From the NCBI GenBank assembly GCA_004193555.1, contig RPGP01000040.1, positions 129,127 through 193,126 on the forward strand: 64,000 bases of DNA. Reading direction: 5' to 3'. The notes below the pieces were generated by a model. The model did not search any database. It worked only from the letters and a program-made list of their open reading frames with translations, and was not told where the DNA came from. This DNA comes from Desulfobacteraceae bacterium Eth-SRB1. GTDB taxonomy: Bacteria > Desulfobacterota > Desulfobacteria > Desulfobacterales > ETH-SRB1. The position numbers and the translations under genes are program-made. This document shows positions 7,457 through 63,932 of the stretch, in pieces; the stretch's first letter is position 1, and every line of letters begins with the position of its first letter.

Positions 7457-7874
<418 letters not shown>

Positions 7875-8800: not shown

Positions 8801-8846
8801 ACTTGTTTTGCGGCAATTCAAAATCGTATCAACAACCCTCTCCAGA

Positions 8847-8931
8847 TCATCATCCGTCTTAATACACTAATCAAGCTGTGACACCATAGACACGTCTTAA
8901 TACACTAATCAAGATGTGACACCATAGACAC
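8847..8931. repeat. 'cttaatacactaatcaag' repeat, copies 2 and 3
   Basis: Two head-to-tail units of about 38-47 bases (first to 8893, second from 8894), differing at one base in ..caag[c/a]tgtgac... The second runs into higA and encodes its last residues. Confidence 0.85.
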
Positions 8932-9222: not shown

Positions 9223-9234
9223 AGGTACACCCTC

Positions 9235-9528: not shown

Positions 9529-9532
9529 ATTG

Positions 9533-9560
9533 ATTGTAACCTATTAAGTAACATTGTCAA
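9533..9560 (-). promoter_or_regulatory. higBA promoter
   Basis: On the minus strand TTGACA (9560-9555), 16 bases, TACAAT (9538-9533). The spacer holds a direct repeat GTTAC-N7-GTTAC, one helical turn apart, a plausible HigA site. The start codon of higB follows after four bases. Confidence 0.7.
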
Positions 9561-9875
9561 GCAGAATGTATTCACATTCTAAATGCATGGCCACAGTTCC
9601 TGAACTTGAGAAGATACGTTTTGTTAATTTTGAATTATTTCGACTCATTTGAGATTTTCTGACATTGCCTTTCATTCAAAACTTTTCATTCAAAATTAAG
9701 AATTATTTTTAATGCTCATGTGAGGTGGCGAGAGAAAAAGTCGTTTTGATTTCATAAAACCGATTCAATCCAATCTCGTGTCTTTAAAAAATACAGGCAA
9801 GTCTTTGGAAAGAAAGCTTTATAATCTGCGTAATCTGCGTAATCTGCGTATTTACTGATCTATTTTTTTTATATT
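9561..9875. other. Spacer with IS and repeat traces
   Basis: No gene. Contains an AT-rich 'cattcaaaattaagaatta' piece (9688-9706), a 26-base stretch at 9718-9743 that reads CEVAREKV in one frame and resembles the IS3 orfA remnant at 27552-27666, and three perfect TAATCTGCG nonamers at 9822-9848. Confidence 0.5.
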
Positions 9876-9909
9876 CTTAATCTGCGAAAATCAGCGTAAT
9901 CTGCGGATC
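9876..9909 (-). repeat. Solo CGCAGATT repeat arm
   Basis: Matches the reverse complement of the GxxExxY left arm (4939-4972) at 33 of 34 positions, keeping the AATCTGCG-like units at 10 and 9 spacing. No GxxExxY gene is attached. It lies eight bases from the stop of the ATPase remnant at 9917. Confidence 0.85.
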
Positions 9910-9916
9910 ATTTTTT

Positions 9917-11055: not shown

Positions 11056-11126
11056 ATAGCTACCCCGGCCGCATTAACCACAATAATGCCAAGCCTGACC
11101 CCCACCATTGCGCCTTTACTGCGCCT

Positions 11127-12498
11127 TTACTGCGCCTTTTGCGCCTTCTCCAAAGCATAATATGTGCCCCTTCCAGTAGTCCCAAATTTTTCCAAAACCT
11201 TCTTATCCACCATATCGTTCAATTCAATAGTCGCAAGCCTGTCTTTAATGCCTGTTAATTTTTGATACTCTTTATTTGTGATTTTCGCCTTTTCCTTTAT
11301 ATAAATAATTCCTTTTATCTGCCGTTCATTCAGATCCAATTTACGTAAATATTCTTCTGTAAAAATATCTTTTCTAAATGTAACCATAAACCCGCCAAAT
11401 TTTTCCTCAAAGACAGGCTCTGGCAATCCTACTTCAACACAGGCATTAATCATCCTCTGAATACCACTGCCATATCGTTCGATTAGTCCAAGATCATAAA
11501 ATACCTGAGCAATCAATTTATTTCTGGGTTTGGATGAATGGCTTGGATGATAAAGTTCCTCCAGAGTAATACCAAAAGGCAAAGGCCCGGGGTTCCATGC
11601 CTGGATATATCCATCGAATATTTTGATCTGAATGTCGGAAGTATCACTGTAATCTCTGTGGCATACGGCATTGATCAAGGCTTCACGCAGGGCATCCAAA
11701 GGATAATCCCATATTTCATCTCGACGAGGCCTTCCACTAATAACAAATTCTACATTAATGTGTTTGCGGATAAAATTCATTACCTCGTCAACCTGATCAA
11801 TAATAGAGCCTGAAAACAACCGGTCATCAATGATTTTCACATTTTTTTTAAATCTTCCGCAATGCACCTGTGCCTGTGTTAATGGCGACTGAGGACGTTT
11901 GCCAAAAAGCAGAATAGCTGCCCACGTTGGTTTGCCGTCCTTAACCAGTTCAAGCTTTTCAAGAATTTCCAAAGGATCTTCTGTTGATCTAAATTTTCTT
12001 CTTCCAGTCGCAAAGGATGCTTTGATATAATTCCTTACATTTTCCAGATCTATATCATCAAAGGCAACATCCCTGGCCGGCAAAGCATCCCAACTATTTC
12101 CTGTAGATATCAAATGCATCTGTGCAATTTCCTGTGGAGACATTTGTCGGTTGCTGTTTGCCACCCTTCGGAAACAACGGCCACGCGTAGCAACCGGCTT
12201 TAATGGATATTCCTGGATCCGGATAATGACAATACTTTTCCCATTTACATTCTCTATCCTGATTTCAGGAATAACAGAGGGCTCTGTATTTTGAGAAATG
12301 TTGTTGCTCCAATCTTTTAATGTTTCTTTCCCAATTGATATACCTTTTAGGCCTCCATCATCATTAACACCAATAAAGATGATACCTCCCCGTGTATTGG
12401 AAAAAGCTGCTGCGGTTTCAACTGTTTTTTTTGCTGAAGGTCTCTTTAAATTCAGTTGATTCAGTTTCACCGGATTTTAAAAATTTTTCAATATCCAT
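11127..12498 (-). CDS. AlbA_2 (Schlafen-like) ATP-binding protein with homopolymer frameshift
   Basis: A homologue of the preceding remnant. From the ATG at 12498 one reads MDIEKFLKSGETESTEFKET, the proper AlbA_2 start, but a run of eight A (minus strand, 12432-12425) shifts the frame; with seven A the gene would be a continuous 456 residues. The downstream frame, open from 12470, contains AAFSNTRGGIIFIGVNDDGG, RGRCFRRVANSNRQMS, DGKPTWAAILLFGKRP, and REALINAVCHRDYS, then a C-terminal helix-turn-helix region. As written, only a shortened form (447 residues with an unrelated first 14) is encoded. It could be phase-variable, decaying, or a sequencing error. Confidence 0.8.
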
Positions 12499-22381: not shown

Positions 22382-23575
22382 TCACCTTCTCACCTTCTTC
22401 TCTTCTCGCCTTCCCACCCGCTCACTGTTTGCTAAAATCCTCACAATTCTCCCTGCCGCGTCTCCATCCCACAAATCCGGCACTTTCCCCTTCTTGCCAT
22501 TTCCCTTGAGAATGTCCTCCACCTCATATTCAAGTTCATCAATTCTCACCAACTTATTTGTGCCCTCCAATACAGTAACCGGCCGTTCAGTATTCTCCCG
22601 CAAAGTCAAACATGGCACTCCAAGGGCAGTGGTCTCTTCCTGCATTCCTCCACTGTCGGTAATGACCAATTTCGCATTTTTCCACAGATACAAAGACTCC
22701 TGAAATCCCAGAGGCGGCAATTGATAAATTTTATCTGACAGACTGCAATCATAGTGTTTCAGCATCTTGGCTGTTCTGGGATGAACAGGAAAAACAATCG
22801 GGATATTTTCGGCAATTCTATTCAATGCCCTGACAATGCCTGCGAGTGATTCGCGATTATCCACATTGGATGGGCGATGCAAAGTAAGAAATACATACTG
22901 ATCAAGCTCCTGCTTAAGAGACTGATGCTCAAACCCTGCCGGATCAACTGCTTCGAGTTTTTTGAGCTGGTACAGGAGATTGTCAATCATCACATGGCCG
23001 ACAAAATATATACGATTCTCCGGCTTGCCCTCTTTTCTCAAATTATCAACAGCGCTTTGTTCAGTTACAAAGAAATAATCGGTAATGGCATCTGTTACCA
23101 TGCGATTGATTTCTTCAGGCATGGTCAAATCAAAACTACGCAAACCCGCCTCTACATGGGCAACCTTTATCAAGAGCTTTTTCGCAACTATGCTGCACGC
23201 CAGTGTTGAATTGACATCACCGACAACAATTACAATATCCGGCTTTTCTTTTAAACAGACTTTTTCAAAACCGGTCATAATCCTGGCAGTCTGCTCCGCG
23301 TGACTGCCCGATCCTGCCTCTAAAAAATAGTCCGGCTTAGGAATCTCCAGATCATCAAAAAACGCCTGCGACATCTCATAATCATAATGCTGCCCAGTGT
23401 GCACAAGCTTCCAATCCAATTTTGGATTATTAGCACTCGATGCTTCTTCTGTTACTAATTTAGAATTAAAAATTAATAATTCATCATTGCGGGAACGGAG
23501 TGCTCGCACAATCGGCGCAATCTTCATAAAGTTAGGCCGTGCCCCGGCAACAAGAATCAGTTTATATTTTTTCAA
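22382..23575 (-). CDS. UDP-GlcNAc 2-epimerase family (WecB/WbpI type)
   Basis: 397 residues of non-hydrolysing epimerase: VAGARPNFMKIAPIVRAL, VHTGQHYDYEMSQAFFDDL, HVEAGLRSFDLTMPEEINR, VTDSGGMQEETTALGVPC in modified form, and RENTERPVTVLEGTN. Given WbpB-D and WbpE nearby it may make UDP-ManNAc(3NAc)A as WbpI does, but plain WecB activity is equally possible. Residues 29-55 (RNDELLIFNSKL...NNPKLDW) interrupt the usual loop between the first helix and VHTGQHYD. Their DNA (23411-23491) is an AT-rich 'attaaaaattaataattcat' repeat seen elsewhere, inserted in frame. The C-terminal SERVGRREEKKVRR comes from CT-rich sequence. Confidence 0.88.
   Translation of the reverse strand: MKKYKLILVAGARPNFMKIAPIVRALRSRNDELLIFNSKLVTEEASSANNPKLDWKLVHTGQHYDYEMSQAFFDDLEIPKPDYFLEAGSGSHAEQTARIMTGFEKVCLKEKPDIVIVVGDVNSTLACSIVAKKLLIKVAHVEAGLRSFDLTMPEEINRMVTDAITDYFFVTEQSAVDNLRKEGKPENRIYFVGHVMIDNLLYQLKKLEAVDPAGFEHQSLKQELDQYVFLTLHRPSNVDNRESLAGIVRALNRIAENIPIVFPVHPRTAKMLKHYDCSLSDKIYQLPPLGFQESLYLWKNAKLVITDSGGMQEETTALGVPCLTLRENTERPVTVLEGTNKLVRIDELEYEVEDILKGNGKKGKVPDLWDGDAAGRIVRILANSERVGRREEKKVRR
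23411..23491 (-). repeat. AT-rich repeat inserted in frame in the epimerase gene
   Basis: Contains 'attaaaaattaataattcat', a variant of the ATTCAAAATTCATAATTGAT family also present at 6076-6096, 9688-9706 and 26235-26272. It adds about 27 codons without disturbing the frame. Confidence 0.6.
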
Positions 23576-38267: not shown

Positions 38268-39482
38268 TCATTTCATGTAAATTGAATCCACAAGGTATTG
38301 AATGCCTTTTTTTAATGAAAAATGTGTTTCGGCTGTATTTCTTGCAGTTTTTCCAATTCTTTCACGTAGACTACTATCTTCTAATAAATAATTAAGATTA
38401 GAAATATATGTTTCTTTATCACCTGAATCTGACATCATAGCATTGTAATCATGCTGTAAATAATCAGTTAGATTTGAAAAATCAGTAGAAATAATCGCTT
38501 TCCCAGAAGCTAAATATTCTGCTACTTTACCAGGGAATCCGGCATTTGCTACTTCAATCCCCATTTCAGGTAAAACTAATATATCAGATTTTTTATATAT
38601 CGCCGGAATATTATCGCTCATTACATTTTCAATCAATAAAAAATGCTTATTTAAAGCCAATTTATCGATCTTTTGATAAAGTAATTTTATATGCCCTTTA
38701 AAAATAATGAAGATTATTTGAAAGGTGTGTTTTTCTTTTAATTCAGAAGCAGACTCTAAAAAAAAATTAATTCCATTATGAAAGATGTAGCTTCCACAAA
38801 ATACAATATTTAATTTATCGTTCTCAATAATTCTCTTTTGTTCCTGTGTTAGAAAATCCAACAATTTTCTATTAGAGCAAGAATCAAATGCCGGTAAATC
38901 TACAAAACTTGGTGTAGCTCTTATAATACTCAGCTTACTATGCATATTTCTATATTTATCTTCAAGGTATTTTGAAACTACAAATAACCGATCGCATTTT
39001 TTAATAATATATTTATCAAATAGCTCTTCATATATGATTGCAAAATAATCTTTTACACTTTTGATCTTAAGAAACTTTCTTCGATTTTCATCACATCTTT
39101 CTACAAAGAACTTCACTTTGTTTTTCTTACAATAACGGGACAAGAGCATGCCTTCAAGAAAACCACCTGTTATTAATACAAAACTAATTTCGTAATGTTT
39201 CATCCAACGAATAACACGAAATATTCCCTTTAATCTAAGAATAATAGAAAATAAACTTCTCTGGATTTTATTTTCTGTTGTTATTTTTTTTTGTTTTGGT
39301 TTTAAGAAGAAATGTACAAAATCTTCCGATTTTTTAATATCCTCAATTGACATAGCTGGGAAGAAATGTAAAAGCTCGGTCTTGATTCCATGCATTTTCA
39401 AACCATAATGCATCATGCGTTTTCGTAATGCAGATGAACCTAAAGGGTAGTCGCCACCAATTATAAAGACCCCTACTTTCAT
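38268..39482 (-). CDS. Glycosyltransferase family 4
   Basis: 404 residues from the ATG at 39482, chosen because it forms an ATGA overlap with the epimerase stop; upstream in-frame starts would overlap by 37 bases. MKVGVFIIGGDYPLGSSALR begins the GT-B fold; VFCGSYIFHNGINFFLESAS, DILVLPEMGIEVANAGFPGK and VAEYLASGKAIISTDFSNL form the donor site. Related to FucNAc/QuiNAc transferases of the WbuB/Fnl neighbourhood by position (directly after fnlC-like), which is suggestive only. Confidence 0.82.
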   Translation of the reverse strand: MKVGVFIIGGDYPLGSSALRKRMMHYGLKMHGIKTELLHFFPAMSIEDIKKSEDFVHFFLKPKQKKITTENKIQRSLFSIILRLKGIFRVIRWMKHYEISFVLITGGFLEGMLLSRYCKKNKVKFFVERCDENRRKFLKIKSVKDYFAIIYEELFDKYIIKKCDRLFVVSKYLEDKYRNMHSKLSIIRATPSFVDLPAFDSCSNRKLLDFLTQEQKRIIENDKLNIVFCGSYIFHNGINFFLESASELKEKHTFQIIFIIFKGHIKLLYQKIDKLALNKHFLLIENVMSDNIPAIYKKSDILVLPEMGIEVANAGFPGKVAEYLASGKAIISTDFSNLTDYLQHDYNAMMSDSGDKETYISNLNYLLEDSSLRERIGKTARNTAETHFSLKKGIQYLVDSIYMK

Positions 39483-40636
39483 ATTACTTTCCATGAATTT
39501 GTAATTCCCCACCATTTATTACTCAATTTTGCTGTGCCTAAAATTGTTTTTAAAACCCTCCACGATGTATTGTTTACCTGGTATTCTGGAGTTATTTGTG
39601 TGTTTTTACATACTTTGTGTTCATCAACAGCTAATTTAACTGCTTCCAATACAATTTCTGGATTCAGGCCGCTTAATATGATGGTTCCTGCATCAATAGC
39701 TTCCAGACGTTCCATAGATTCACGAATAGTGATAGCCGGAAAATTGAGAATTGCAGATTCTTCACTAATTGTACCACTGTCACTAATTGCACAAATTGCA
39801 TTCTTCTGCAGATATATATAATCCAGAAAACCAAAAGGTTTTAGATACTTTATGCGATTATCTATTGTTATTTCTTCTAATAATTTCAAACGCTTTCTGG
39901 TACGAGGATGTGTGGAAACAATTACAGGAACATCATATTCTTCAGCAAGTTGATTTAAAATTGTAACAATCTTACGTAAGTTATTGGGATCATCTACATT
40001 TTCTTCTCGATGTGTACTAACTATAAAATATTTTTCCTTTTGTAAGCTTAATGTTTTTAATACGTTTGATTTTTCAATCTTATCTTGATACTGTTTCAGC
40101 ACTTCAAACATCGGAGATCCAGTTACATATATTCTGCGATGAGGAAGTCCTTCTGCTAAAAGGTGTCGGCGAGCATTTTCTGTATAAACAAGGTTAAGAT
40201 CTGCGATGTGATCAATGACCCGTCGATTTATTTCTTCCGGAACGTTTAAATCAAAACTCCTGTTACCCGCTTCCATATGATATATTGGAATTCTAAGTCT
40301 CTTGGCGATAATACATGCAATACTACTATTAGTATCTCCAAGAATTAGTACAGCATCAGGTTTTTCTTTATAGAATATTTCCTCACTTTTAATAATTGTT
40401 TCACCATAAACTGTACCTATTGAAGAAGTATTTACATTTAGAAAATAGTTGGGTTTTCTGATACCAAGGTCATTAAAAAAAACAGCATTTAATTCATAAT
40501 CATAATTTTGCCCAGTATGAACCAACACATGGTCAACATAGATATCTAATAACTTTATTATCTCAGATAACCTTATAATCTCTGGCCGTGTTCCCACAAT
40601 AGTAACAACTTTTATAGGTTTGGTGTTTTTCATCAT
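39479..40636 (-). CDS. UDP-GlcNAc/UDP-HexNAc 2-epimerase (FnlC/WbjD/WbvD type)
   Basis: 385 residues: VTIVGTRPEIIRLSEIIKLL, VHTGQNYDYELNAVFFNDLG, HMEAGNRSFDLNVPEEINRR, STHPRTRKRL, and SDSGTISEESAILNFPAITI. The HMEAGNRSFDLNVPEEINR variant and its place behind an FnlA homologue and a reductase indicate the last step of UDP-L-FucNAc or UDP-L-QuiNAc synthesis, epimerisation at C2 of the UDP-6-deoxy-L-talo/rhamno-HexNAc intermediate. Distinct in sequence from the epimerase at 22382-23575. Confidence 0.85.
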   Translation of the reverse strand: MMKNTKPIKVVTIVGTRPEIIRLSEIIKLLDIYVDHVLVHTGQNYDYELNAVFFNDLGIRKPNYFLNVNTSSIGTVYGETIIKSEEIFYKEKPDAVLILGDTNSSIACIIAKRLRIPIYHMEAGNRSFDLNVPEEINRRVIDHIADLNLVYTENARRHLLAEGLPHRRIYVTGSPMFEVLKQYQDKIEKSNVLKTLSLQKEKYFIVSTHREENVDDPNNLRKIVTILNQLAEEYDVPVIVSTHPRTRKRLKLLEEITIDNRIKYLKPFGFLDYIYLQKNAICAISDSGTISEESAILNFPAITIRESMERLEAIDAGTIILSGLNPEIVLEAVKLAVDEHKVCKNTQITPEYQVNNTSWRVLKTILGTAKLSNKWWGITNSWKVI

Positions 40637-40654
40637 AATATGTATGTATTTGAA

Positions 40655-41611
40655 TTAATATTTATATATTGTACTTTCATCAATATATTCCTTTAAATTC
40701 TGAACGGCTGTTTTCATGGATTGTATCTTTAGCGGATAAAGTACTGAGAACAAGGTTCTATCAACAGGTTCTCCAATATCACTTATTTTTTTTATTATAT
40801 AATTTCTATTGAATATTTCTTTAAATATTTTTAACAACTCATATTTATTAACAGATTTGTTTTTTATATAATTAATAGTATGATAGGAATTTCTGATATT
40901 ATCGAATTTGTTTTCTAAAATAATTTCTTCGCAAAACTGTGCGAATTGTAAAGTAGTTATTCCATTCCAGTAGTGGTGGGCAAATCCGTTTAATTCCGAC
41001 CCTGAAGGATGGGATAAAAACCACTCAAGCAGACTCAATCTTCCGTTTATTTCAGGTCCTATTATACTACAGCGGATGTTAAGGAAATTTTTATGTCGAA
41101 CCTCACCTAAGCTTTTGGTTTTACCATAAACATCAATTGGGTCGTGTAGTGCATTTTCATCATAATTACCTATTGTTCCCCTGAATACACAATCGGTTGC
41201 AATTTGGATTATTTTAGTTGAAGTGACAAGATTTTCACAAATATATGTCAATTGATAGGGGAAATATGAATTTACAGCAATGGCTTTGTATACTCCAATC
41301 GGATTTTCATCTTTACAATATGGTTTTATAATTCCGATACAGTTGATAATATAATCTGGCTGAAAAGTTTTAAAAATTTCCAAACACTGTTTTTCAAGAG
41401 CGATATTTGCGTCAAATTTTGAAAAATTGCTTTCTTTATTGCTGGGTTTGTTTTTCTTTTCATTGAAATATGTACCATGCATTTCAAAGTTTTTATTTTT
41501 ACTAAAATAATCAAATACCATTGAGCCTAACATTCCTGTAGCTCCCAACACTAATATTTTATTCCTTCTCTTTTTGATAGTTTTATTCAACTCTTTTATC
41601 CTGTATATCAT
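40655..41611 (-). CDS. RmlD-like NAD(P)-dependent 4-ketoreductase
   Basis: 318 residues of the RmlD substrate-binding family: ILVLGATGMLGSMVFDYFSK (Rossmann GxxGxxG), DYIINCIGIIKPYCKD, QIATDCVFRGTIGNYDENAL, HDPIDVYGKTKSLGE with the catalytic YxxxK. Between FnlA and the 2-epimerase it should reduce the 4-keto group. FnlB/WbjC proteins have an additional C-terminal cupin domain and are longer; this single-domain protein is more like WbvR, which directs the pathway to UDP-L-QuiNAc. The start overlaps fnlA by 29 bases. Confidence 0.82.
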   Translation of the reverse strand: MIYRIKELNKTIKKRRNKILVLGATGMLGSMVFDYFSKNKNFEMHGTYFNEKKNKPSNKESNFSKFDANIALEKQCLEIFKTFQPDYIINCIGIIKPYCKDENPIGVYKAIAVNSYFPYQLTYICENLVTSTKIIQIATDCVFRGTIGNYDENALHDPIDVYGKTKSLGEVRHKNFLNIRCSIIGPEINGRLSLLEWFLSHPSGSELNGFAHHYWNGITTLQFAQFCEEIILENKFDNIRNSYHTINYIKNKSVNKYELLKIFKEIFNRNYIIKKISDIGEPVDRTLFSVLYPLKIQSMKTAVQNLKEYIDESTIYKY

Positions 41612-42602
41612 TTCTTATAAAATCAAGTTTTAATAACAGTTCTTTAGTTTGTTCACAATTTAGCCGGATGGTGTTATGAGAAGTATATTCTTCGACTTCA
41701 GAAATTTTATTCTCTCCTTTTGAGAAATAGAGGTTGTAATTTAAATTACGTACATCTGCAGGTATACGATAAAATTTACCTAAATTTTCTGCTTTCACCA
41801 TCTCTTCTCTATTAACTAAGGATTCAAAAAGCTTTTCACCATGACGAGTACCAATGATTTTTATTTGATTGTTAGCATTATAAAGTTCTTTAAGCGCTTG
41901 AGCAAGAATACCAATAGTACATGCTGGTGCTTTCTGTACAAATATATCTCCTGGATTTCCATGTTCAAAAGCATACATAACCAGATTAACCGAATCATCA
42001 AGCGTCATCATAAATCTTGTCATGCAAGGGTCAGTAATTGTGATCGGGTTTTTATCTTTGATCTGCTGTACAAATAGAGGGATTACCGATCCGCGTGAAG
42101 CCATTACATTTCCATATCTTGTTCCGCACAATATTGTAGAATGATTAGCTTCTCTGGATTTTGCGATCATCACCTTTTCCATCAGGGCTTTAGACATTCC
42201 CATGGCATTAATCGGACAAACAGCTTTGTCTGTGCTAAGTATAATGACTCTTTTTACCTTATTAGCAATCGCAGCCGTCAATACATTTTCAGCCCCCAAT
42301 ATATTTGTTTTTACCGCCTGCATAGGAAAAAATTCGCATGAAGGAACCTGCTTTAACGCGGCCGCATGAAATACATAATCAACTCCATACATTACGCTAT
42401 TGACGCTGTTACAATCCCTCACATCTCCGATATAAAATTTCACTTTGGGATTATCAAGCCTTTTCCTCATATCATCCTGCTTTTTTTCATCACGAGAAAA
42501 TATGCGGATTTCACTTAATTCAGAATCTATAAAGCGGTTTAAAACCGCATTTCCAAAAGAACCGGTTCCACCGGTAATTAGTAAAGTTTTATTTTTAAAC
42601 AC
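41583..42602 (-). CDS. fnlA: UDP-GlcNAc 4,6-dehydratase/5-epimerase (FnlA/WbjB/CapE)
   Basis: 339 residues of extended SDR: LLITGGTGSFGNAVLNRFID, FYIGDVRDCNSVNSVMYGVD, HAAALKQVPSCEFFPMQAVK, TNILGAENVLTA, LSTDKAVCPINAMGMSKALM and GTRYGNVMASRGSVIPLF. The MGMSK in place of YxxxK is normal for this subfamily. It converts UDP-GlcNAc to the 4-keto-6-deoxy L-sugar that starts UDP-L-FucNAc or UDP-L-QuiNAc synthesis. First of the three pathway genes, eight bases overlapping the glycosyltransferase upstream. Confidence 0.92.
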   Translation of the reverse strand: MFKNKTLLITGGTGSFGNAVLNRFIDSELSEIRIFSRDEKKQDDMRKRLDNPKVKFYIGDVRDCNSVNSVMYGVDYVFHAAALKQVPSCEFFPMQAVKTNILGAENVLTAAIANKVKRVIILSTDKAVCPINAMGMSKALMEKVMIAKSREANHSTILCGTRYGNVMASRGSVIPLFVQQIKDKNPITITDPCMTRFMMTLDDSVNLVMYAFEHGNPGDIFVQKAPACTIGILAQALKELYNANNQIKIIGTRHGEKLFESLVNREEMVKAENLGKFYRIPADVRNLNYNLYFSKGENKISEVEEYTSHNTIRLNCEQTKELLLKLDFIRNDIQDKRVE

Positions 42603-56881: not shown

Positions 56882-57946
56882 TTAATCGTCGAACAACAAC
56901 TTAAGGGTCTTTTTATATTCCCCCAATTGCCCTACATCAATATAAGACTTCTCAGAAATGGGATAAACACCGACACTCAATCCTGCTTTCTGGGCTTTCA
57001 TTATCAGATCCGTCATATCAAAATATTCATCTATTGGGATAAGTTTATAAGCTGATGGCTCAAGCAAGTACATCCCTGCATTGACCAGAAAATCATATTC
57101 CGGTTTTTCTCTTATTTCCTTAAGATGCCCCTCATTTTCAATTTCGCAAACTCCATAAGGAACTGTATGATGTTGCATTGATGCAACCAATGTTAGATCA
57201 AATTTTCCATCTTTATGAAATTTATGAATTTTACAGTAATCTTCCTTTATAATGATATCACAATTGGATACAAAAAACGTTGAATCTATCTTATCCTCTA
57301 AAAACTTCAATGCTCCGGCCGTGCCAAGGGGTTGGCTTTCATCAATATATTTTATGTTATAATCAATATCTTGATCATCAAAATAGGCCTTGATCATCTT
57401 CGCCTTATGATTCACAGAAATGTAAAAATTGCTCAACCCATATTTTGTGTACTCATCCATAATGATTTCTATCATTGTTTTATCACCTATGGGAATAAGT
57501 GGTTTGGGTAAAATACGAGTAAATGGATCTAATCTTGTACCTTTACCTCCTGCCATTATAACAACAGGTATGTTAAGAACATTTTTGCTTTTTCCCTTAC
57601 CCCTAATATCATAAAAATCCTCTTCCGTAATAATTTCTATCAATTTGCCATTTTCTAAGATAGGAAGATGCTGTGCAACCGTTTCACGAAAAAGTTCTAA
57701 TACATCTTCCTTTAAATAACCTGTCTTGAGATATTTAAAGTTTTTATTTGTGATTCTTAATACATTTTCATTGAGAGACATTCCATTTAAAACTGCCCTT
57801 CTAAAATCACCATCTGAAATTACACCAATCACATTTTCGTTCTCACCGACACACACAGCGAAGCCAATACCACCTTCATCCATTTTCTTAATAGCATCTC
57901 GTATATTTTCGTTTTGGCATATAATATATTTATTAAGATTTTCCAT
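56882..57946 (-). CDS. Sugar-1-phosphate nucleotidyltransferase with CBS pair (PtmE-like)
   Basis: 354 residues. Residues 1-120 are two CBS motifs (NIRDAIKKMDEGGIGFAVCV, VIGVISDGDFRRAVLNGMSL; HLPILENGKLIEIITEEDFY). Residues 125-354 are a nucleotidyltransferase with VVIMAGGKGTRLDPFTRILP, KPLIPIGDKTMIEIIMDEYT and FFVSNCDIIIKEDY (metal-binding D). The same architecture in Campylobacter PtmE is a GlcN-1-P guanylyltransferase that begins the GDP-sugar route to legionaminic acid. With neuA and neuB homologues directly upstream the same role is likely here. It overlaps neuA by 14 bases. Confidence 0.85.
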   Translation of the reverse strand: MENLNKYIICQNENIRDAIKKMDEGGIGFAVCVGENENVIGVISDGDFRRAVLNGMSLNENVLRITNKNFKYLKTGYLKEDVLELFRETVAQHLPILENGKLIEIITEEDFYDIRGKGKSKNVLNIPVVIMAGGKGTRLDPFTRILPKPLIPIGDKTMIEIIMDEYTKYGLSNFYISVNHKAKMIKAYFDDQDIDYNIKYIDESQPLGTAGALKFLEDKIDSTFFVSNCDIIIKEDYCKIHKFHKDGKFDLTLVASMQHHTVPYGVCEIENEGHLKEIREKPEYDFLVNAGMYLLEPSAYKLIPIDEYFDMTDLIMKAQKAGLSVGVYPISEKSYIDVGQLGEYKKTLKLLFDD

Positions 57947-58625
57947 GTTTCCTCATCAAAAACTCCGCAAATTCAAAATCAAGGGGTGTGTCTATATCGA
58001 GAGACCTTTCTGAAGGCATGACATAGGCGTAAGTATTATCTGAATAGTAGGAGTCCCGGCTTTTTAACAGTGATAGTTTTAAAATAAATATTGCGCCATT
58101 GGGCATAAAGGCAGGCACCAGCTCCTGCCTGTTCTTATTGCCAATATCAATATTGAAATAATCTTTCAACACACCGGAATGGTCAATTTTTTTTGCCCAC
58201 ATGGGTGGATGGGAAGCCTCGCAAACAGAAATTACCGAGTCGGCATTTTTTTCGTGGAATAATTTGATAGCATTATCGATATCAGCCGCTGTCCTGAAAG
58301 GTGAAGTGGGTTGAAGAACAACGAATTCATCATACTGCGTGGGATTGCTGGTATTCAAGCGGTCAATTGTATAAATATAATTATCAATTGCCAATGAATC
58401 ATCCTTCGCCAGATGTGCAGGCCGCATGAAAGGAATTTCAACGTCATATTTACCGGCTATTTTTGCAATTTCCGGATCATCTGTGGACAATATAATCCGA
58501 TCAACCGACTTTGCGGCCACTGCGGCTTCAATCGTATAAACAATCAGCGGCTTGCCGCACAACAGTTTTATATTTTTCCCCGAAATCCCCTTGGATCCGC
58601 CGCGTGCTGGAATAATAGCTAACAT
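57933..58625 (-). CDS. neuA: CMP-nonulosonate cytidylyltransferase (NeuA/LegF type)
   Basis: 230 residues: LAIIPARGGSKGISGKNIKL (CTP-binding loop), VDRIILSTDDPEIAKIAGKY, VVLQPTSPFRTAADIDNAIK, NGAIFILK, and SLDIDTPLDFEFAEFLM with the metal Asp. It activates a 9-carbon sugar as the CMP derivative. It sits between the PtmE-like gene and the NeuB-like synthase; the exact sugar (legionaminic, sialic, or another) cannot be read from this gene. Confidence 0.9.
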   Translation of the reverse strand: MLAIIPARGGSKGISGKNIKLLCGKPLIVYTIEAAVAAKSVDRIILSTDDPEIAKIAGKYDVEIPFMRPAHLAKDDSLAIDNYIYTIDRLNTSNPTQYDEFVVLQPTSPFRTAADIDNAIKLFHEKNADSVISVCEASHPPMWAKKIDHSGVLKDYFNIDIGNKNRQELVPAFMPNGAIFILKLSLLKSRDSYYSDNTYAYVMPSERSLDIDTPLDFEFAEFLMRKHGKS

Positions 58626-58669: not shown

Positions 58670-59734
58670 TCAATCGGCCAAATCCCCCAAAAAAATAGTC
58701 TTGTCTTTTTCAATATCCCGATTCAATATCTTACCAAGAGCTTTATTTAATTGATCAGGCTGTATTCCTGTTCCCGGTCTTTTAAACACCAAGTCTTCTC
58801 GTTTTAATACTTCTTCTTTTTTCATATCTCTTGCCGTAACCAAGCTTCTTCTGAACTTCAAGCGTTTATCCAACTCTTCTTGTGTCAAGTCCTTTTTTTC
58901 TGTACCCAACGCATTCCATATTCTTTTAGACTCTTTGCAGATAATTTCCATTTCAAAAGGATCAGCAGATACCTTATGGTCCCATCCTGGCATTTCCTTG
59001 TCGAGTGTGAAATGTTTTTCAACCACGCTTGCCCCAAGCGCCACCGCGGCTAATGCAACTGAATAACCCAAGGTATGGTCTGAATAACCTATTTCGACAT
59101 CGCACATATTTTTAAGGGTATTTATAAACCGAAGATTCACTATTTCGTCTCTTGGCGGGTAAAGAGACACTGTATGAAGTAAGGCAACCTGCTTCTTTTG
59201 TTTACTTGGAATGAGTTTAACAACATTTTCGATTTCACCCACAGATGCCAATCCAAGCGAAATGACCGTAGGAAAATCTTTTGAAAGGACATACTCTATG
59301 AATTCCGGATTATTCACATCCATGGAAGCCACTTTAAGAAAATCCACTTTCTGCTCCACTAAAAAATCTACGCCTTCTTTTGTTACAGGAGTGGATGCAT
59401 AGCCTATCCCCTTTTTCCTCGCATATTGAAAAAGTTCGATATGCTCTTCGTATCCAATTACAAATTTCTCAATCTGTTCAGTGATATTGCGCAAGCCCAG
59501 TTCTTTTGTTTCCCACTTGTCAATATTTTCAAGCTTTACGTCCCCTCTATCAAGCTCTTGCAAATGATCTTCTGTAATCAGGGTTTCTTTGCTGAACAAC
59601 TGTAGCTTTATAGCGTCCACACCACATTTTTTTGCCTCAACAATCATTCTTTTGGCAAGGTCTATATCGCCGTTATGATTACATCCAATCTCAGCTATTA
59701 TGTAAGGTTTAGTCAAGTTCTTGAAATTTAGCAT
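58670..59734 (-). CDS. neuB: Nonulosonic acid synthase (NeuB/LegI type)
   Basis: 354 residues: YIIAEIGCNHNGDIDLAKRM, DAIKLQLFSKETLITEDHLQ in part, YASTPVTKEGVDFLVEQKVD, EIGYSDHTLGYSVALAAVAL, GASVVEKHFTLDKEMPGWDH form the TIM barrel with its metal His; the last 65 residues, RRSLVTARDMKKEEVLKRED and GTGIQPDQLNKALG, are the SAF antifreeze-like domain. Condenses phosphoenolpyruvate with an N-acyl hexosamine. Overlaps the GT2-like gene upstream by 26 bases. Confidence 0.92.
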   Translation of the reverse strand: MLNFKNLTKPYIIAEIGCNHNGDIDLAKRMIVEAKKCGVDAIKLQLFSKETLITEDHLQELDRGDVKLENIDKWETKELGLRNITEQIEKFVIGYEEHIELFQYARKKGIGYASTPVTKEGVDFLVEQKVDFLKVASMDVNNPEFIEYVLSKDFPTVISLGLASVGEIENVVKLIPSKQKKQVALLHTVSLYPPRDEIVNLRFINTLKNMCDVEIGYSDHTLGYSVALAAVALGASVVEKHFTLDKEMPGWDHKVSADPFEMEIICKESKRIWNALGTEKKDLTQEELDKRLKFRRSLVTARDMKKEEVLKREDLVFKRPGTGIQPDQLNKALGKILNRDIEKDKTIFLGDLAD

Positions 59735-60650
59735 TTTTATTCTCCAACTGTTCTAATAGCTTTATGTTTTCCCACCAAGTAAATTTTTGCGTATCAAAAA
59801 ATGTGTTTACAGCCGTTATATAATTTGACCTTCTCTTGGGATCTGCCACATACTTCTCAACCGACTTTATGTCATTCAAATATTTCCTATATTGGTTTTG
59901 CTGGCTGGAATGAATTTGAGAAAAATATTCATAATGAGTCTTTTTCACTCTCAATCCTTGAAACAATTTTTTTTCATCAAGTCGAAAATCAAAGCCAACC
60001 AACGAATTATTGTATTGTCTATAATATGCAAATGTATTTTTAATTTGTATTCCTTTTCCGCCCTTAAGCAAAATCCAGGTAAATAAGAACCAGTCGAATG
60101 CGATGACATTATCCGGAACAAGAAATTTTGAATAATCAAGTTTCGTTAAATTGATTGTGCTACTTCCAAGCCCACAAAAGTTGCGATGAAACAAATTTTG
60201 CACGTTGCTTAAAACCTTTGGAATATCACGCGTTGAGTAGCACGAGTTTTCTGATAAAAGACGATTCTTAAAATCAACTAAATAAAAATCATTGAAAGCA
60301 AATTCGTAATCGCCAATCTGATTAACAACCGATGAAACCCGATTTTCAGTTACAGTTTCGTCAAAATCAGAAAAAATTAAAACTTCCCCATCCATCTCAC
60401 AAGCCTTTCGAATTAAAAGCTCTCTGAGTTTTGATGGCGAAAATCCTCCTTCGGTTTGTACAATTTCAACATCACATTCAAAGGAATACTTACTTAATTC
60501 AGCAGACAATCTAAATCCGCTCAAATCATCATTCACAATCAGCAAAGTAAAGTTGTTGTGATCTTGCTTTTCTATTGTGTTGATATACTCTTTAAGAAAT
60601 AAATCAAAAAAAGGGCAATCGTAAACAACTGTAGCATAAATTACTTTCAT
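59709..60650 (-). CDS. GT2-like glycosyltransferase
   Basis: 313 residues from the ATG at 60650 (GTGGATGGA before it; another ATG at 60659). MKVIYATVVYDCPFFDLFLK, NNFTLLIVNDDLSGF (GT-A NDD), GEVLIFSDFDETVTENRVSS (the D-x-D-like region), FDWFLFTWILLKGGKGIQIK. The fold is that of inverting GT2 enzymes, but the motifs are weak. Located with neuB/neuA it may belong to nonulosonic acid transfer or to a different linkage; unclear. Confidence 0.65.
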   Translation of the reverse strand: MKVIYATVVYDCPFFDLFLKEYINTIEKQDHNNFTLLIVNDDLSGFRLSAELSKYSFECDVEIVQTEGGFSPSKLRELLIRKACEMDGEVLIFSDFDETVTENRVSSVVNQIGDYEFAFNDFYLVDFKNRLLSENSCYSTRDIPKVLSNVQNLFHRNFCGLGSSTINLTKLDYSKFLVPDNVIAFDWFLFTWILLKGGKGIQIKNTFAYYRQYNNSLVGFDFRLDEKKLFQGLRVKKTHYEYFSQIHSSQQNQYRKYLNDIKSVEKYVADPKRRSNYITAVNTFFDTQKFTWWENIKLLEQLENKNAKFQELD

Positions 60651-60720
60651 TCCATCCACTAATAGACGTCAGGGTTACCCATTGAATATACATAAAGGGG
60701 CCATATCCTTTTTTCATTTT

Positions 60721-61605
60721 TCAAAACACATCCGAATCTATCATTTCTATGAAAAAATCTTCTTCAAAATTAATTGAACTGGCATTTAATGTTTTATAAC
60801 AAAGATGACGCTCATAATTTTCGTTTTGATACTCAAAATATTTTTGAATTAATTTAAACATTTTTTGGGTAGAAAAGATTAGACTAATTTTTTTACTAAT
60901 CCCATTATCTTGTAGATAATTATAAACTTTATTCAAAATATCTATATACTCAAATTGATCTTTACAATTTAATATAGAAATCAAATCTACCTGATCACCA
61001 TATTTTTTAAAAATGACAAAAATATTATTATATTTTAATATTTTGTAATCTGTATTAGGTTTGCTTAAACGCCACAAAATCCAATCATCTCTACGTTTCA
61101 TAAAATTATTTTTCGAATTGTTTAGATAAACAAAATTCTTAAATGAAATTCTTTCAATTGTTTCTTTATTAATTTTAACTGGTTGTTTAGATTTTGTAAG
61201 TATCAAGTGCTTATAATTAGGATTATATTTCCATCTAAATAATTTACTATTAAAAATTGGAAATGAATTTTTATTGCAAAACGCATAGAGCAGAATACAT
61301 TTTTTTTTTAAATAATTTTCAATAGTTATAAAAAATGGTATGAACAAACCAGTGTAATTTCTGTCAACCATTGACCCACCTGACAAATATATAACCTCAC
61401 CGTTATAATGTTGTGGAAAAATATAATTATATGCAATTAATTGATTATCATGAAATTCACCAAATTCTATAATTTTCCCCGAAGGATTATCTGAATACCA
61501 ATTTCTAAAAGATGATATATCAATAGCTTTCTTGAAAGCCTGCAAAAATAGCGATTGAATACTATTATCAATATGTTGAGACCTTTCTAATATCTTCAAA
61601 CTCAC
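60721..61605 (-). CDS. GNAT-like acyltransferase (putative)
   Basis: 294 residues. FRNWYSDNPSGKIIEFGEFH, DNQLIAYNYIFPQHYNGEVI, YLSGGSMVDRNYTGLFIPFF and ITIENYLKKKCILLYAFCN have the strand-helix order of an N-terminal GNAT fold (the 'V...YRG.GLF' acyl-CoA/ACP-binding step reads VDRNYTGLFIPFF); the second half looks like another degenerate GNAT domain with WRLSKPNTDYKIL. It is the last gene of the ACP-reductase-adenylase set (four-base overlap), so it may transfer the acyl group from the carrier to a sugar amine. AT-rich. Family call moderate, role inferred. Confidence 0.6.
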   Translation of the reverse strand: MSLKILERSQHIDNSIQSLFLQAFKKAIDISSFRNWYSDNPSGKIIEFGEFHDNQLIAYNYIFPQHYNGEVIYLSGGSMVDRNYTGLFIPFFITIENYLKKKCILLYAFCNKNSFPIFNSKLFRWKYNPNYKHLILTKSKQPVKINKETIERISFKNFVYLNNSKNNFMKRRDDWILWRLSKPNTDYKILKYNNIFVIFKKYGDQVDLISILNCKDQFEYIDILNKVYNYLQDNGISKKISLIFSTQKMFKLIQKYFEYQNENYERHLCYKTLNASSINFEEDFFIEMIDSDVF

Positions 61606-62933
61606 TTTCTTACCTTTTTAAATCTATCAGAAACCTGTTTTTCTTTGGTGATTTTAATATAAGCAGGAATTTTAAACGATTCCAATCTGCTTTTACAGTA
61701 TTTTCTAATCCTTTTTTTTAAGGAATTAACCGGCTCGTCATCTTCAAGATTGATCTTGGCTGCAACGATCTTTCCCATAATTGGATTATCTTTTGAAAAT
61801 ACCGATACATCATTAATATTATCCATTTCTAATAAAACAGATTCAACTTCCGCAGGATATACTTTTTGCCCACCAACATTAATAATATCAGTGGTTCTCC
61901 CAAGAATTTTTATCCATTCTCCGTCAACTTCTACTTTGTCTTGAGTATTAAACCAACCGTTAAATTCTTCACATCTGTCAGGGTATATATATCCGAGCAT
62001 TGAAGTAGAAGCTTTTAAAAAGAGCACGCCATTTTCAATTTTATAATCGGTGGTTCGCCTATCAATACTTATCCAAAGCGGATCGTTTGGTTTACTTTTT
62101 ACAATTGGGCTTCCCATTTCAGTAATCCCGTATTTTTGGATTGCTCTTACTTCAGTTCCAAGCATGATTTTGGTTTTTTTCAGAGTTTCGTCTGCCATTC
62201 GTTCAGAACCAAAAGTGATAATTTTGAAATTCGGTAATTCGGAAGAATTCCATAGAGATCTGATAATTAACATAGTTAAGAAACTTGGTGACGTTGGAAA
62301 TACTTCTACATGGTTCTCACGCAAGGTTTCATAAACATTATCAGGTGATCTGTCTGTAATCCTGACAAGAGCACCATGAGCAAAAAGAGTATATAATAAC
62401 GTGTCAATTCCGGCAATATGATCAAAAAGCAAGAAACCTAATGTTATGTAAGACTTTTTACTAAATTCATATTTTTTTAACAACTTTGTTGCCGAATGCA
62501 GGATGGCCTTTGGTTTTCCTGTAGTGCCAGAGGTGAAAAATATTATACCACTTTCATTTTGATGGAATAATTTTGCGGTTAATGAAGGAAGTTTATTATC
62601 AGCTAATTTTATGATATTTTCAGTAACATGATCGAAAATAAAATTGGCACCTATTGTTTTTTGAAGCTCAGAGTTTTCTCTGTTATCATTATTCATTAAA
62701 GTAACTACATTTCCTGTTATTAACAAAGCCAGAAACATAGTGACAGAATTAATATCGAAATCTCCATATATAATTACGGTTTTTTTTTCAATTCCATTAT
62801 TCAGTAAAAGTTTCTCATAATCGTTTACTTTTTGTAGAAGATCACGATAAGTATATTGGTAATTATTGTCTACCAAAGCAGTCTTCTTCTGAAAAGCGTG
62901 GTTTTGCAACATCTGCTTAATGAACTTCCTCAT
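61602..62933 (-). CDS. Acyl/aryl adenylating enzyme (ANL superfamily)
   Basis: 443 residues, short for the superfamily. A3 loop IFFTSGTTGKPKAILH (131-146), A5-like IQKYGITEMGSPIV, A7 GWFNTQDKVEVDGEWIKILG, A8 hinge GRTTDIINVGGQKVYPAEVE, and a C-terminal Lys (A10) in KEKQVSDRFKKVRK. It should activate a carboxylic acid with ATP and load it on a carrier, most plausibly the ACP encoded two genes upstream. N-terminal shortening suggests a small substrate, but specificity cannot be read by eye. Abuts the reductase gene (one-base overlap) and overlaps the GNAT gene by four bases. Confidence 0.88.
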   Translation of the reverse strand: MRKFIKQMLQNHAFQKKTALVDNNYQYTYRDLLQKVNDYEKLLLNNGIEKKTVIIYGDFDINSVTMFLALLITGNVVTLMNNDNRENSELQKTIGANFIFDHVTENIIKLADNKLPSLTAKLFHQNESGIIFFTSGTTGKPKAILHSATKLLKKYEFSKKSYITLGFLLFDHIAGIDTLLYTLFAHGALVRITDRSPDNVYETLRENHVEVFPTSPSFLTMLIIRSLWNSSELPNFKIITFGSERMADETLKKTKIMLGTEVRAIQKYGITEMGSPIVKSKPNDPLWISIDRRTTDYKIENGVLFLKASTSMLGYIYPDRCEEFNGWFNTQDKVEVDGEWIKILGRTTDIINVGGQKVYPAEVESVLLEMDNINDVSVFSKDNPIMGKIVAAKINLEDDEPVNSLKKRIRKYCKSRLESFKIPAYIKITKEKQVSDRFKKVRK

Positions 62934-63640
62934 CAGTAACTAACTCCGCCTAAAAAAATTACTTGTCCAGTTATAAAATTACTTTTATCAGAAATAAAGA
63001 AATCAATTACATTGGAAATATCATCAAACTCTCCATATCTATTAATCGTTTGCATATTTAACAAAGAATCCATTTTTTCCTTTGGAACATTCTTTATTAA
63101 ATCAGTATAAATTGGTGTGGGGCCAATTGCGTTTACTGTAATATTATACGTAGAAAATTCTTTTGCTAAAATTTTAGTAATTGATTCGATGGCTGATTTA
63201 GATGCAGCATAAACAGATTCCCCCTCCATTTTTAGCGGTGTAGCTATAGTTGCAAAATTAATAATTCTGCCGAATTTATTTTTAGCCATTATTTTACCTG
63301 CTTCACGGCAAAAGACAAAAGTACCAAACACATTTGTTTTGAAAACTTTTTCCACAACAGAAAGAGGGGTAAGCAAACTATGATTCATTGATGCAATGCC
63401 AGCGTTGTTTATCAGATAATCAATTTTGCCATATTTTTTTGAGATTGCAGAGATCATTTTATTCACAGCTTTTTCATCAGCAACATCCAAACAAAAATGT
63501 TCATATTTTTCGTGTTTTAAATCAGATTCAGACCTTGAGCAACCGATTACAATAAAATTTTTACCAAGATAATATTCAGATAAGTATCTTCCAATACCTT
63601 TCCGTGTGCCTGTTATTACCATTACTTTTTTATTCATCAA
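62933..63640 (-). CDS. SDR-family reductase (FabG-like)
   Basis: 235 residues of classical SDR: VMVITGTRKGIGRYLSEYYL (TGxxxGIG), DYLINNAGIASM (NNAG), YAASKSAIESITKILAKEFS (YxxxK), VNAIGPTPIYTDL and a final FITGQVIFLGGVSY. The Ser of the catalytic tetrad is replaced by a Thr/Ala context (NFATIATP). Between an ACP and an adenylating enzyme it is probably a beta-ketoacyl-ACP or hydroxyacyl-ACP oxidoreductase; a sugar reductase is the alternative. It overlaps the ACP gene by 11 bases. Confidence 0.85.
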   Translation of the reverse strand: MMNKKVMVITGTRKGIGRYLSEYYLGKNFIVIGCSRSESDLKHEKYEHFCLDVADEKAVNKMISAISKKYGKIDYLINNAGIASMNHSLLTPLSVVEKVFKTNVFGTFVFCREAGKIMAKNKFGRIINFATIATPLKMEGESVYAASKSAIESITKILAKEFSTYNITVNAIGPTPIYTDLIKNVPKEKMDSLLNMQTINRYGEFDDISNVIDFFISDKSNFITGQVIFLGGVSY

Positions 63641-63932
63641 TTTCCTCGTTTTCTGTTACTTGTTCTCCAATAAAATCCGCTAAAGTTGAAATAGTTCTAA
63701 AAGGACTATTACGACGAGACATTGCCTTTTCAGATGTAAGCGAGATTTCGTAATCTTCATCTAAAAATCTTGATTCTATATCAATTATAACATTTACCAA
63801 ACCCATGGAATCAAGAACAGATTCTTTGCCAAATAAGACAGTATCTTCATTAGCTTTCTCATTAAAATCTTGAGACTCAAAATATTCATTAACTGTTTTA
63901 TTTAAAATTTCCTTTATTCTATGTTTTTCCAT
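63630..63932 (-). CDS. Acyl carrier protein
   Basis: 100 residues, acidic, with the 4'-phosphopantetheine attachment site in VLDSMGLVNVIIDIE (Ser42, DSMGL instead of the commoner DSLD/E). The first 38 residues and the helix after the Ser follow the PP-binding fold; an inserted RRNSPFRTIST precedes the last helix. As a dedicated carrier it starts the module ACP-SDR-ANL-GNAT. GAGGG lies six bases before the ATG, so it is likely well translated. Confidence 0.87.
   Translation of the reverse strand: MEKHRIKEILNKTVNEYFESQDFNEKANEDTVLFGKESVLDSMGLVNVIIDIESRFLDEDYEISLTSEKAMSRRNSPFRTISTLADFIGEQVTENEEIDE

What the first reader, a model, noticed from the sequence alone, without database searches (positions are those of the whole stretch)
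60721..63932. ACP-reductase-adenylase-GNAT module: possible new sugar acylation system
Four overlapping genes encode a dedicated acyl carrier protein, an SDR, a short ANL enzyme and a GNAT-like protein just upstream of nonulosonic acid genes. The order suggests activation of an acid, loading on the carrier, reduction or oxidation there, and transfer to an amino sugar. Sugars with unusual N-acyl groups (for example hydroxybutyryl) are known, but a complete dedicated module of this type is not one I recognise.
Basis: inference. Interest (0 to 1): 0.7.

Follow-up and report, generated by a model that had tools for sequence, protein, structure and literature searches.

The report
Acyl-supply cassette in sialic-like sugar operon
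A bacterium seems to have placed a portable three-gene kit, related to one that makes hydroxy-acid building blocks for antibiotics, inside the genes for a sialic-acid-like surface sugar, probably to put an unusual acyl group on that sugar; the kit is real and recurs, but which acid it makes and which enzyme attaches it are not shown.

Summary
The four genes are there, overlapping and on one strand, inside a legionaminic-type nonulosonic acid (NulO) operon that continues beyond the window (LegB, LegC, NeuD, a PIG-L deacetylase). ACP, SDR and ANL form a real, portable cassette: the order ACP-SDR-ANL recurs in 33 of 44 loci examined. The ANL shares one clade, and family-specific residues absent from outgroups, with the adenylating enzyme of the thiomarinol "priming cassette" (MupQ/TmlQ type), a kind of cassette that makes 3-hydroxypropionyl or 4-hydroxybutyryl starter units. 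The ACP and SDR, however, are not the thiomarinol types, so this is a sister version, not a member. The cassette is not glycan-specific: by a loose criterion 10 of the 33 lie beside giant (8 of 10 NRPS/PKS-like) ORFs and 16 beside glycan-type genes, and only this one was seen beside neuB. The "GNAT-like" fourth protein is an orphan; its GNAT identity could not be verified. Best reading: hydroxyacyl-ACP supply for re-acylating an amino sugar after PIG-L deacetylation. Carrier-linked acid activation for sugar N-acylation is already proposed for Vibrio cholerae O1. New variant of a known kind.

The parts
63630..63932 (-). dedicated acyl carrier protein, 100 aa, carrier Ser42 (DSMG), C-terminal AMSxxxSPFR motif
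   Evidence: 62% to G017 ACP, 18% to thiomarinol-cassette ACP; no Pfam match
62933..63640 (-). SDR, window-type clade; Asn103, Tyr144, Lys148 conserved; Thr131 aligns with the usual catalytic Ser (my reading of the column)
   Evidence: 72% to G017 SDR, 26% to the thiomarinol-cassette SDR
61602..62933 (-). short ANL (adenylating) enzyme, MupQ/TmlQ-type clade, C-terminal RFK in place of the usual GK
   Evidence: 35% to the pTML1 ANL
60721..61605 (-). orphan 294-aa protein, candidate acyl-ACP:amino-sugar N-acyltransferase (GNAT label unverified)
   Evidence: position only
59709..60659 (-). family-2 glycosyltransferase-like gene between the cassette and neuB
   Evidence: PF00535, 23.4 bits, cut-off 23.3
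58670..59734 (-). NeuB-family nonulosonic acid synthase
   Evidence: PF03102 235 bits; below every equivalog cut-off
57933..58625 (-). CMP-nonulosonic acid synthetase-like cytidylyltransferase
   Evidence: PF02348; PseF 166 bits, cut-off 205.7
56882..57946 (-). CBS-domain sugar nucleotidyltransferase, PtmE-like architecture (PtmE label recalled)
   Evidence: PF00483 plus PF00571, two stretches

Best explanation
A legionaminic-type NulO operon has gained a portable acyl-supply cassette. The ANL adenylates a free carboxylate and loads it onto the phosphopantetheine of the dedicated ACP. The SDR reduces the bound acyl group to a short hydroxyacyl-ACP, most likely an omega-hydroxy acid such as 3-hydroxypropionyl or 4-hydroxybutyryl made from a dicarboxylyl-CoA, as in the mupirocin/thiomarinol cassette. 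PIG-L removes an N-acetyl from the NulO precursor, and a transferase (best candidate the orphan fourth protein) moves the hydroxyacyl group from the ACP to the freed amine before NeuB makes the nonulosonic acid. Shown: gene content, operon layout, recurrence of the trio, clade and residue signature of the ANL, LegB/LegC/NeuD identity. Inferred: every catalytic step, the acyl group, the acceptor amine and the transferase. Sub-estimates: acyl supply for N-acylation in this operon 0.6; short omega-hydroxyacyl 0.35; fourth protein as transferase 0.5.
For: ANL clade with the pTML1 ANL, 100/100 support against four outgroups (order inside the clade unresolved). Seven residues (G129, D171, R195, F218, M246, R437, F438) 19 of 19 in a chosen set of clade ANLs and 0 of 8 outgroups; no position separates thiomarinol-type from window-type ANLs. 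Over all 44 loci G129, D171, F218, M246 and R437 hold in 41 of 42, 42 of 44, 43 of 44, 43 of 44 and 43 of 43 readable rows. Priming cassette chemistry from passages of PMC10098928. Trio order 33 of 44. LegB 521.8 bits (cut-off 475), LegC 558.4 (420), NeuD 191.3 (160.8) and PIG-L PF02585 87.8 (28.2), just upstream of the ACP. GNAT PF13302 just before the ACP in G930. The 287-aa protein after the ANL in G379, G419 and G420, followed in G379 and G419 by a polysaccharide deacetylase. Sugars with N-4-hydroxybutyryl and NulOs with N-3-hydroxybutyryl exist (PMC3210612).
Against: SDR and ACP are not the MupS/TmlS and MacpD/TacpD types (26% and 18%; separate SDR clades; alignments), so the chemistry may differ. 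R195 and F438 are not invariant over all loci (37 of 43 and 36 of 42). The fourth protein has no verified fold or relative. The cassette often serves other pathways (10 of 33 beside ORFs of 1500 aa or more). No hydrolysing 2-epimerase (LegG/NeuC) over its cut-off in the genome, so the NulO route itself is incomplete on paper. No other cassette was seen near neuB (0 of 43).
Confidence: 0.5

Rival explanations
1. Same logic, other acid: the ANL loads a free short acid (acetoacetate, 3-hydroxybutyrate, glycerate or 2,4-dihydroxybutyrate) and the SDR works as an ordinary 3-oxoacyl-ACP reductase or acyl dehydrogenase, giving for example N-3-hydroxybutyryl sugars.
For: Best SDR profile is 3-oxoacyl-ACP reductase (158.6 bits, below the cut-off 297.75), and FabG structures top the PDB list. 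NulOs with (S)-3-hydroxybutyryl are known. V. cholerae RfbL is described as activating 2,4-dihydroxybutanoate.
Against: In the 19-member set no ANL position separates the window type from the thiomarinol type.
Confidence: 0.27
2. The cassette serves O-acylation or another modification of the polysaccharide (or of a lipid) and not the NulO amine; the fourth gene is unrelated to transfer.
For: Elsewhere the trio lies by acyltransferase-3 genes (G311 by Pfam; G907 and G640 by blastp to it) and MBOAT genes (G839).
Against: PIG-L sits directly beside the ACP, and the trio sits between LegB/LegC/NeuD and NeuB in one run of same-strand genes; none of the nine window genes examined is an O-acyltransferase of those kinds.
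Confidence: 0.13
3. The trio is a leftover or mobile natural-product starter module that happens to sit in the glycan locus and has no role there.
For: Low G+C of the trio and fourth gene (0.24-0.33 against 0.44-0.46 for LegB, LegC and NeuD); no relative of the ANL at E 1e-30 in the 16 other family genomes.
Against: All four frames intact and overlapping; no KS or very large synthase gene near it. Low G+C is not peculiar to the trio: PtmE 0.33, GT2 0.33 and several 3.2-kb bins of the window at 0.30-0.34.
Confidence: 0.07
4. The SDR is a sugar-pathway enzyme (PtmA-like) and only ACP and ANL form the acyl unit.
For: SDRs of this kind occur in Campylobacter NulO loci (recalled).
Against: The window-type SDR travels with ACP and ANL in 33 of 44 loci, including loci with giant synthase-like ORFs and no sugar gene detected.
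Confidence: 0.03

Closest known systems
Mupirocin/thiomarinol priming cassette (MupQ/MupS/MacpD; TmlQ/TmlS/TacpD, the latter names recalled)
   Same: ANL of the same clade with the same family-specific residues; an SDR and a discrete ACP in the same gene set
   Different: Gene order reversed (ANL-SDR-ACP there), SDR and ACP of other types, TmpF/MmpF-type ketosynthase absent here; polyketide starter, not sugar
Vibrio cholerae O1 tetronate genes rfbK/rfbL (wbeL)
   Same: ACP plus adenylating ligase in an O-antigen locus supplying an acid to acylate an amino sugar
   Different: Other redox enzymes (recalled), perosamine not NulO; sequences not compared
Enterobacterial flagellin glycosylation islands with Acp, CaiC, FabG, LuxE, LuxC
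   Same: ACP, ligase and 3-ketoacyl reductase genes in glycan loci (PMC4875605 section 9)
   Different: LuxE/LuxC also present; authors suggest a liposugar; sequences not compared
Legionaminic acid pathway (LegB, LegC, NeuD/LegH, LegI, LegF, PtmE)
   Same: LegB, LegC and NeuD over NCBIfam cut-offs, plus a NeuB-family synthase
   Different: No LegG over cut-off in the genome; extra PIG-L and acyl cassette

Membership tests
MupQ/TmlQ priming cassette | ANL of the MupQ/TmlQ clade | tested here: met
   clade 100/100; signature 19 of 19 against 0 of 8, five of the seven residues near-invariant over 44 loci. The pTML1 gene's name TmlQ is recalled; MupQ itself was not compared
MupQ/TmlQ priming cassette | SDR of the MupS/TmlS clade | tested here: not met
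   window SDR in another clade (100/99) from pTML1/Burkholderia/Bradyrhizobium SDRs (100/98)
MupQ/TmlQ priming cassette | ACP of the MacpD/TacpD kind | tested here: not met
   18% identity; best match is the window-type model
MupQ/TmlQ priming cassette | MmpF/TmpF-type ketosynthase beside it | tested here: not met
   none near; 5 of 5 ANL-SDRt-ACPt loci have one
MupQ/TmlQ priming cassette | makes 3-hydroxypropionyl- or 4-hydroxybutyryl-ACP | not testable with these tools
   needs enzyme assay
Legionaminic acid pathway | LegB and LegC | tested here: met
   521.8 (cut-off 475) and 558.4 (cut-off 420) bits
Legionaminic acid pathway | hydrolysing 2-epimerase LegG/NeuC | tested here: not met
   best 89.7 bits, cut-off 235.9; the two window candidates are over the WecB cut-off
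Legionaminic acid pathway | NulO synthase (LegI) | tested here: inconclusive
   NeuB family PF03102, below equivalog cut-offs
GNAT N-acyltransferase (fourth gene) | profile match to a GNAT family | tested here: not met
   no Pfam/NCBIfam match
GNAT N-acyltransferase (fourth gene) | GNAT fold | tested here: inconclusive
   pLDDT 42.0 and 39.5; no alignment partners
V. cholerae rfbKL system | homologous ACP and ligase | not tested
   no V. cholerae sequence was compared here

The most novel reading that the evidence does not exclude
A polyketide-type starter-unit cassette (MupQ-family ANL with its own ACP and SDR) has been recruited into nonulosonic acid biosynthesis. PIG-L strips an N-acetyl and an unrecognised acyl-ACP:amino-sugar N-acyltransferase family (the orphan gene) installs an omega-hydroxyacyl group, giving a new acyl-NulO. 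The same portable cassette, paired with different transferases, decorates glycans and primes NRPS/PKS lines across a phylum.
Probability: 0.3. Interest if true: 0.68.

Novelty: new variant of a known kind. Interest (0 to 1): 0.48.

Why it matters
Hydroxyacylated amino sugars are known chemically, but I found no paper linking a priming-type ACP cassette to them (searches, listings only beyond the papers named here, within an open-licence library). The ANL signature and the ACP-SDR-ANL order give a handle for predicting such sugars, and for separating two sister versions of a starter-unit cassette, from sequence alone.

Tried and rejected
Structure of the fourth protein: AlphaFold2 on the whole protein and on residues 1-165, no alignment, pLDDT 42.0 and 39.5; fold search not run because the models are meaningless. 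Homology of the fourth protein to the 287-289-aa proteins of G379, G419, G420 and Rhizobium T1470: not detectable by blastp, phmmer or hhalign against G379 and Rhizobium singly, nor by hmmsearch or hhalign against a profile of all four. Those proteins look GNAT-like by eye, but the only GNAT score seen is E 0.021 for the G420 protein, under the cut-off (G379 had none at 0.01, and the other two were not run against Pfam), and their profile finds no GNAT in the PDB.

A viral 'relative' of the fourth protein lies in a 2326-aa ORF, tape-measure-like by its look, and is a chance match. The G012 match (E 0.0045) was not reproduced by tblastn. Scan of genome contigs with the ANL found only a 21% match, inside a 7.5-kb frame. 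A Tistrella plasmid holds a window-type ACP (38%) with no match to the reference SDR or ANL in 18 kb; it was not counted. DNA search of the four genes in E. coli genomes: no match.

Yersinia ruckeri O1 (recalled to carry a 4-hydroxybutyryl NulO) as a test: the passages read say its O1 cluster makes nonulosonic acid but not which acyl genes; its genome could not be addressed by name. Walker et al. 2020 is not held.

Rows dropped before counting: four weak ANL matches (G734, G835, G839:C42, G894; E between 1e-50 and 1e-56) and two G713 fragments. Of 1661 plasmid records matched (30 listed), four representatives were taken as cassettes and four as outgroups. The ANL of G092 (26%) was left out of the 19-member residue test but kept in the locus count and. 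13 of the 40 genome loci are of the G385 class and many are near kin, so counts are not independent events. The glycan label is loose: one blastp match (E 1e-6) to any of 14 reference proteins within 8 kb on either strand was enough. Among the 7 'neither' loci, G347 has the start of a condensation-domain (NRPS) gene and G419 a polysaccharide deacetylase that the script did not look for.
Full report
What is there. Four minus-strand ORFs occupy 60721-63932, in transcription order ACP (63630-63932), SDR (62933-63640), ANL (61602-62933) and a 294-aa protein (60721-61605), overlapping by 11, 1 and 4 bases. SDR and ANL are over Pfam cut-offs; the ACP and the fourth protein match no Pfam family over its cut-off and no NCBIfam family near its cut-off. 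The ACP has the carrier serine (DSMG, Ser42, invariant in an alignment of 14 cassette ACPs).

Surroundings. Downstream on the same strand come a family-2 glycosyltransferase-like gene, a NeuB-family synthase, a CMP-NulO-synthetase-like gene and a CBS-domain sugar nucleotidyltransferase with PtmE-like architecture. Upstream, beyond the window end (L008), come a PIG-L deacetylase (PF02585), a NeuD-type acetyltransferase, a LegC-family aminotransferase and LegB, the last three over their NCBIfam cut-offs (191.3 against 160.8; 558.4 against 420; 521.8 against 475). So the four genes sit inside a legionaminic-type NulO operon. LegG/NeuC is missing: the best match in the genome has 89.7 bits against a cut-off of 235.9, and the two 2-epimerases in the window are over the WecB cut-off. 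The four genes have G+C of 0.24-0.33, against 0.44-0.46 for LegB, LegC and NeuD, but PtmE and the glycosyltransferase gene are also at 0.33 and several stretches of the window at 0.30-0.34. None of the 16 other genomes of the family has the ANL at E 1e-30 or better. Both facts are compatible with a later insertion; neither proves it.

The trio is a real unit. With the ANL as query, 9 of 394 other genomes in a sample of the phylum match at E 1e-25 or better. An ANL profile then found matches in 6 of 46, 2 of 3, 14 of 297, 2 of 17 and 18 of 291 genomes of single classes (these overlap with each other and, and the last includes the own genome). I took 40 genome loci (own included) and four plasmid loci. 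The exact order ACP(window-type)-SDR(window-type)-ANL is found in 33 of 44, ANL-SDR(thiomarinol-type)-ACP(thiomarinol-type) in 5 of 44, other or broken arrangements in 6 of 44. As a control, 0 of 12 loci holding ANLs outside the clade show a cassette-type ACP (over 60 bits) or window-type SDR (over 200 bits), though 9 of the 12 carry only about 1.5 kb or less of flank.

Closest characterised relative. The best-placed plasmid relatives of the ANL (34.7-35.5% identity over 96-97%) lie in Burkholderia, Bradyrhizobium and on pTML1, a plasmid of the thiomarinol producer Pseudoalteromonas SANK 73390, each with SDR and ACP next to it and a TmpF-like ketosynthase-type gene after these. Passages of PMC10098928 say that MupQ (an adenylation domain), MupS (a malonyl-CoA/ACP reductase) and MacpD make the 3-hydroxypropionate starter of mupirocin from malonyl-CoA, that thiomarinol is primed from 4-hydroxybutanoyl, and that MmpF lies immediately downstream of these genes, with a homologue TmpF in thiomarinol. 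The names TmlQ/TmlS/TacpD and the bis-thioester mechanism are recalled (Walker et al. 2020, not held); the plasmid table gives no such gene names. In the tree the window ANL, its phylum relatives and the pTML1-type ANLs form one clade against four outgroups (100/100), with the order inside the clade unresolved. In a set of 19 clade ANLs seven residues (G129, D171, R195, F218, M246, R437, F438, window numbering) are invariant and absent in 8 of 8 outgroups, and no column separates the two types. Over the ANLs of all 44 loci the counts are G129 41 of 42, D171 42 of 44, F218 43 of 44, M246 43 of 44, R437 43 of 43, but R195 only 37 of 43 and F438 36 of 42, the exceptions being mostly in the G385 class. 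This makes a shared kind of substrate plausible for the window and thiomarinol types.

But the other two parts differ. The window SDR lies in a separate clade (100/99) from the pTML1, Burkholderia and Bradyrhizobium SDRs (100/98), with 26% identity to the pTML1 SDR and 72% to its G017 relative. The ACP has 18% identity to the pTML1 ACP and 62% to G017. ACP type, SDR type and gene order go together in 38 of 44 loci. So this is a sister version, not a member, of the priming cassette. In the SDR alignment Asn103, Tyr144 and Lys148 are invariant, and Thr131 stands where FabG-type enzymes have the catalytic serine (the reading of that column is mine).

Is it a glycan system? Of the 33 exact window-type loci, 10 have an ORF of at least 1500 aa within 8 kb (in 8 of these it matches adenylation-enzyme references as NRPS/PKS proteins would); 16, own included, have no such ORF but at least one glycan-type neighbour by a loose test (single hexapeptide, acyltransferase-3 or DegT genes count); 7 have neither. 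NeuB was seen near 0 of the 43 other loci, 9 of which are on stretches of 6.5 kb or less. Informative cases: G930, a deoxysugar locus with a GNAT (PF13302, 42.2 bits against 25.4) directly before the ACP; G379, G419 and G420, with a 287-aa protein directly after the ANL, followed in G379 and G419 by a polysaccharide deacetylase, a parallel to the PIG-L here; G385 and kin, with a DegT aminotransferase carrying a GNAT-like tail (below Pfam cut-offs in G385) and a KASIII gene beside the trio on the other strand; G017 and G839 with a methyltransferase between ACP and SDR. The cassette is thus a general short-acyl supply unit used by several pathways, glycan loci among them.

The fourth gene. It has no recognisable relative: none but itself in 395 genomes of the phylum sample and one chance match besides itself in 389 of the class, none in plasmids or phages. 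It is not detectably related to the G379-type protein. Its GNAT label rests on a residue pattern read by eye. Its position, overlapping the ANL stop, makes it the best transferase candidate, nothing more.

How it probably works, and how sure. ANL activates a carboxylate and loads the ACP; SDR reduces the bound acyl to a hydroxyacyl; PIG-L frees an amine; a transferase moves the hydroxyacyl to it; NeuB and the CMP-transferase finish. All steps are inferred. I give 0.6 to acyl supply for N-acylation in this operon, 0.35 to an omega-hydroxyacyl such as 3-hydroxypropionyl or 4-hydroxybutyryl, 0.5 to the fourth protein as transferase.

What is known. ACP-linked activation for sugar N-acylation is not new in kind. 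V. cholerae RfbL is described as activating 2,4-dihydroxybutanoate and putatively attaching it to CoA or the carrier RfbK (PMC12208996, passages), and deletion of wbeL removes the O1 antigen, whose perosamine is acylated with tetronate (PMC3441752, passages). Enterobacterial flagellin islands carry ACP, CaiC-type ligase and FabG genes, which their authors read as a liposugar component (PMC4875605, passages and section 9). Sugars with N-4-hydroxybutyryl and NulOs with N-3-hydroxybutyryl are reported (PMC3210612, passages; a 3-N-(4-hydroxybutanoyl) sugar appears in a reference title in PMC8707391). I found no paper on a MupQ-type cassette in a NulO locus (searches; listings), but the library holds only open-licence papers. 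Verdict: real, partly as described, a new variant of a known kind, of moderate interest.

Noticed in passing
whole genome G000; window 39479-40636 and 22382-23575: The legionaminic-type operon has no LegG/NeuC hydrolysing 2-epimerase over its cut-off anywhere in a 98% complete genome; the two 2-epimerases in the window are over the WecB cut-off. How the NeuB substrate is released and epimerised is unexplained.
   Followed up: partly
window 60721-63932: G+C of the four genes is 0.24-0.33 against 0.44-0.46 in LegB/LegC/NeuD, as if inserted between NeuD and NeuB, though other parts of the window are also low.
   Followed up: partly
L100 (G980:C267) and L102 (G795:C314): Thiomarinol-type cassettes (ANL-SDRt-ACPt plus TmpF-like ketosynthase) occur in the window's own class, outside the producers named in the paper passages read.
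   Followed up: no
L030 (G092) 6740-11167: One locus holds a thiomarinol-type SDR beside a divergent ANL, and a methyltransferase, a window-type ACP and a window-type SDR: a possible hybrid of the two cassette types.
   Followed up: partly
L027, L108, L109, L110 (G385, G460, G449, G462): Trio next to KASIII, a long DegT aminotransferase (GNAT-like tail in G385) and a second ACP on the other strand, and a 1368-1398-aa protein; the G449 copy and the 1379-aa one of G385 have no Pfam match.
   Followed up: partly
L088-L091, L093, L098, L101: KASIII-like gene directly or closely before ACP-SDR-ANL with very large NRPS/PKS-like ORFs: the cassette probably primes unknown natural products in this class.
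   Followed up: no
window 39479-42602: FnlA-like and RmlD-like genes (below their equivalog cut-offs) and WecB in a row, the layout of a UDP-N-acetyl-L-fucosamine-type pathway, in the same glycan region.
   Followed up: partly
L013 (Rhizobium sp. T1470 plasmid): A window-type cassette with a 289-aa GNAT-looking protein between ACP and SDR, a NeuD-like protein and a CmlS-annotated halogenase, on a plasmid typed as conjugative.
   Followed up: partly
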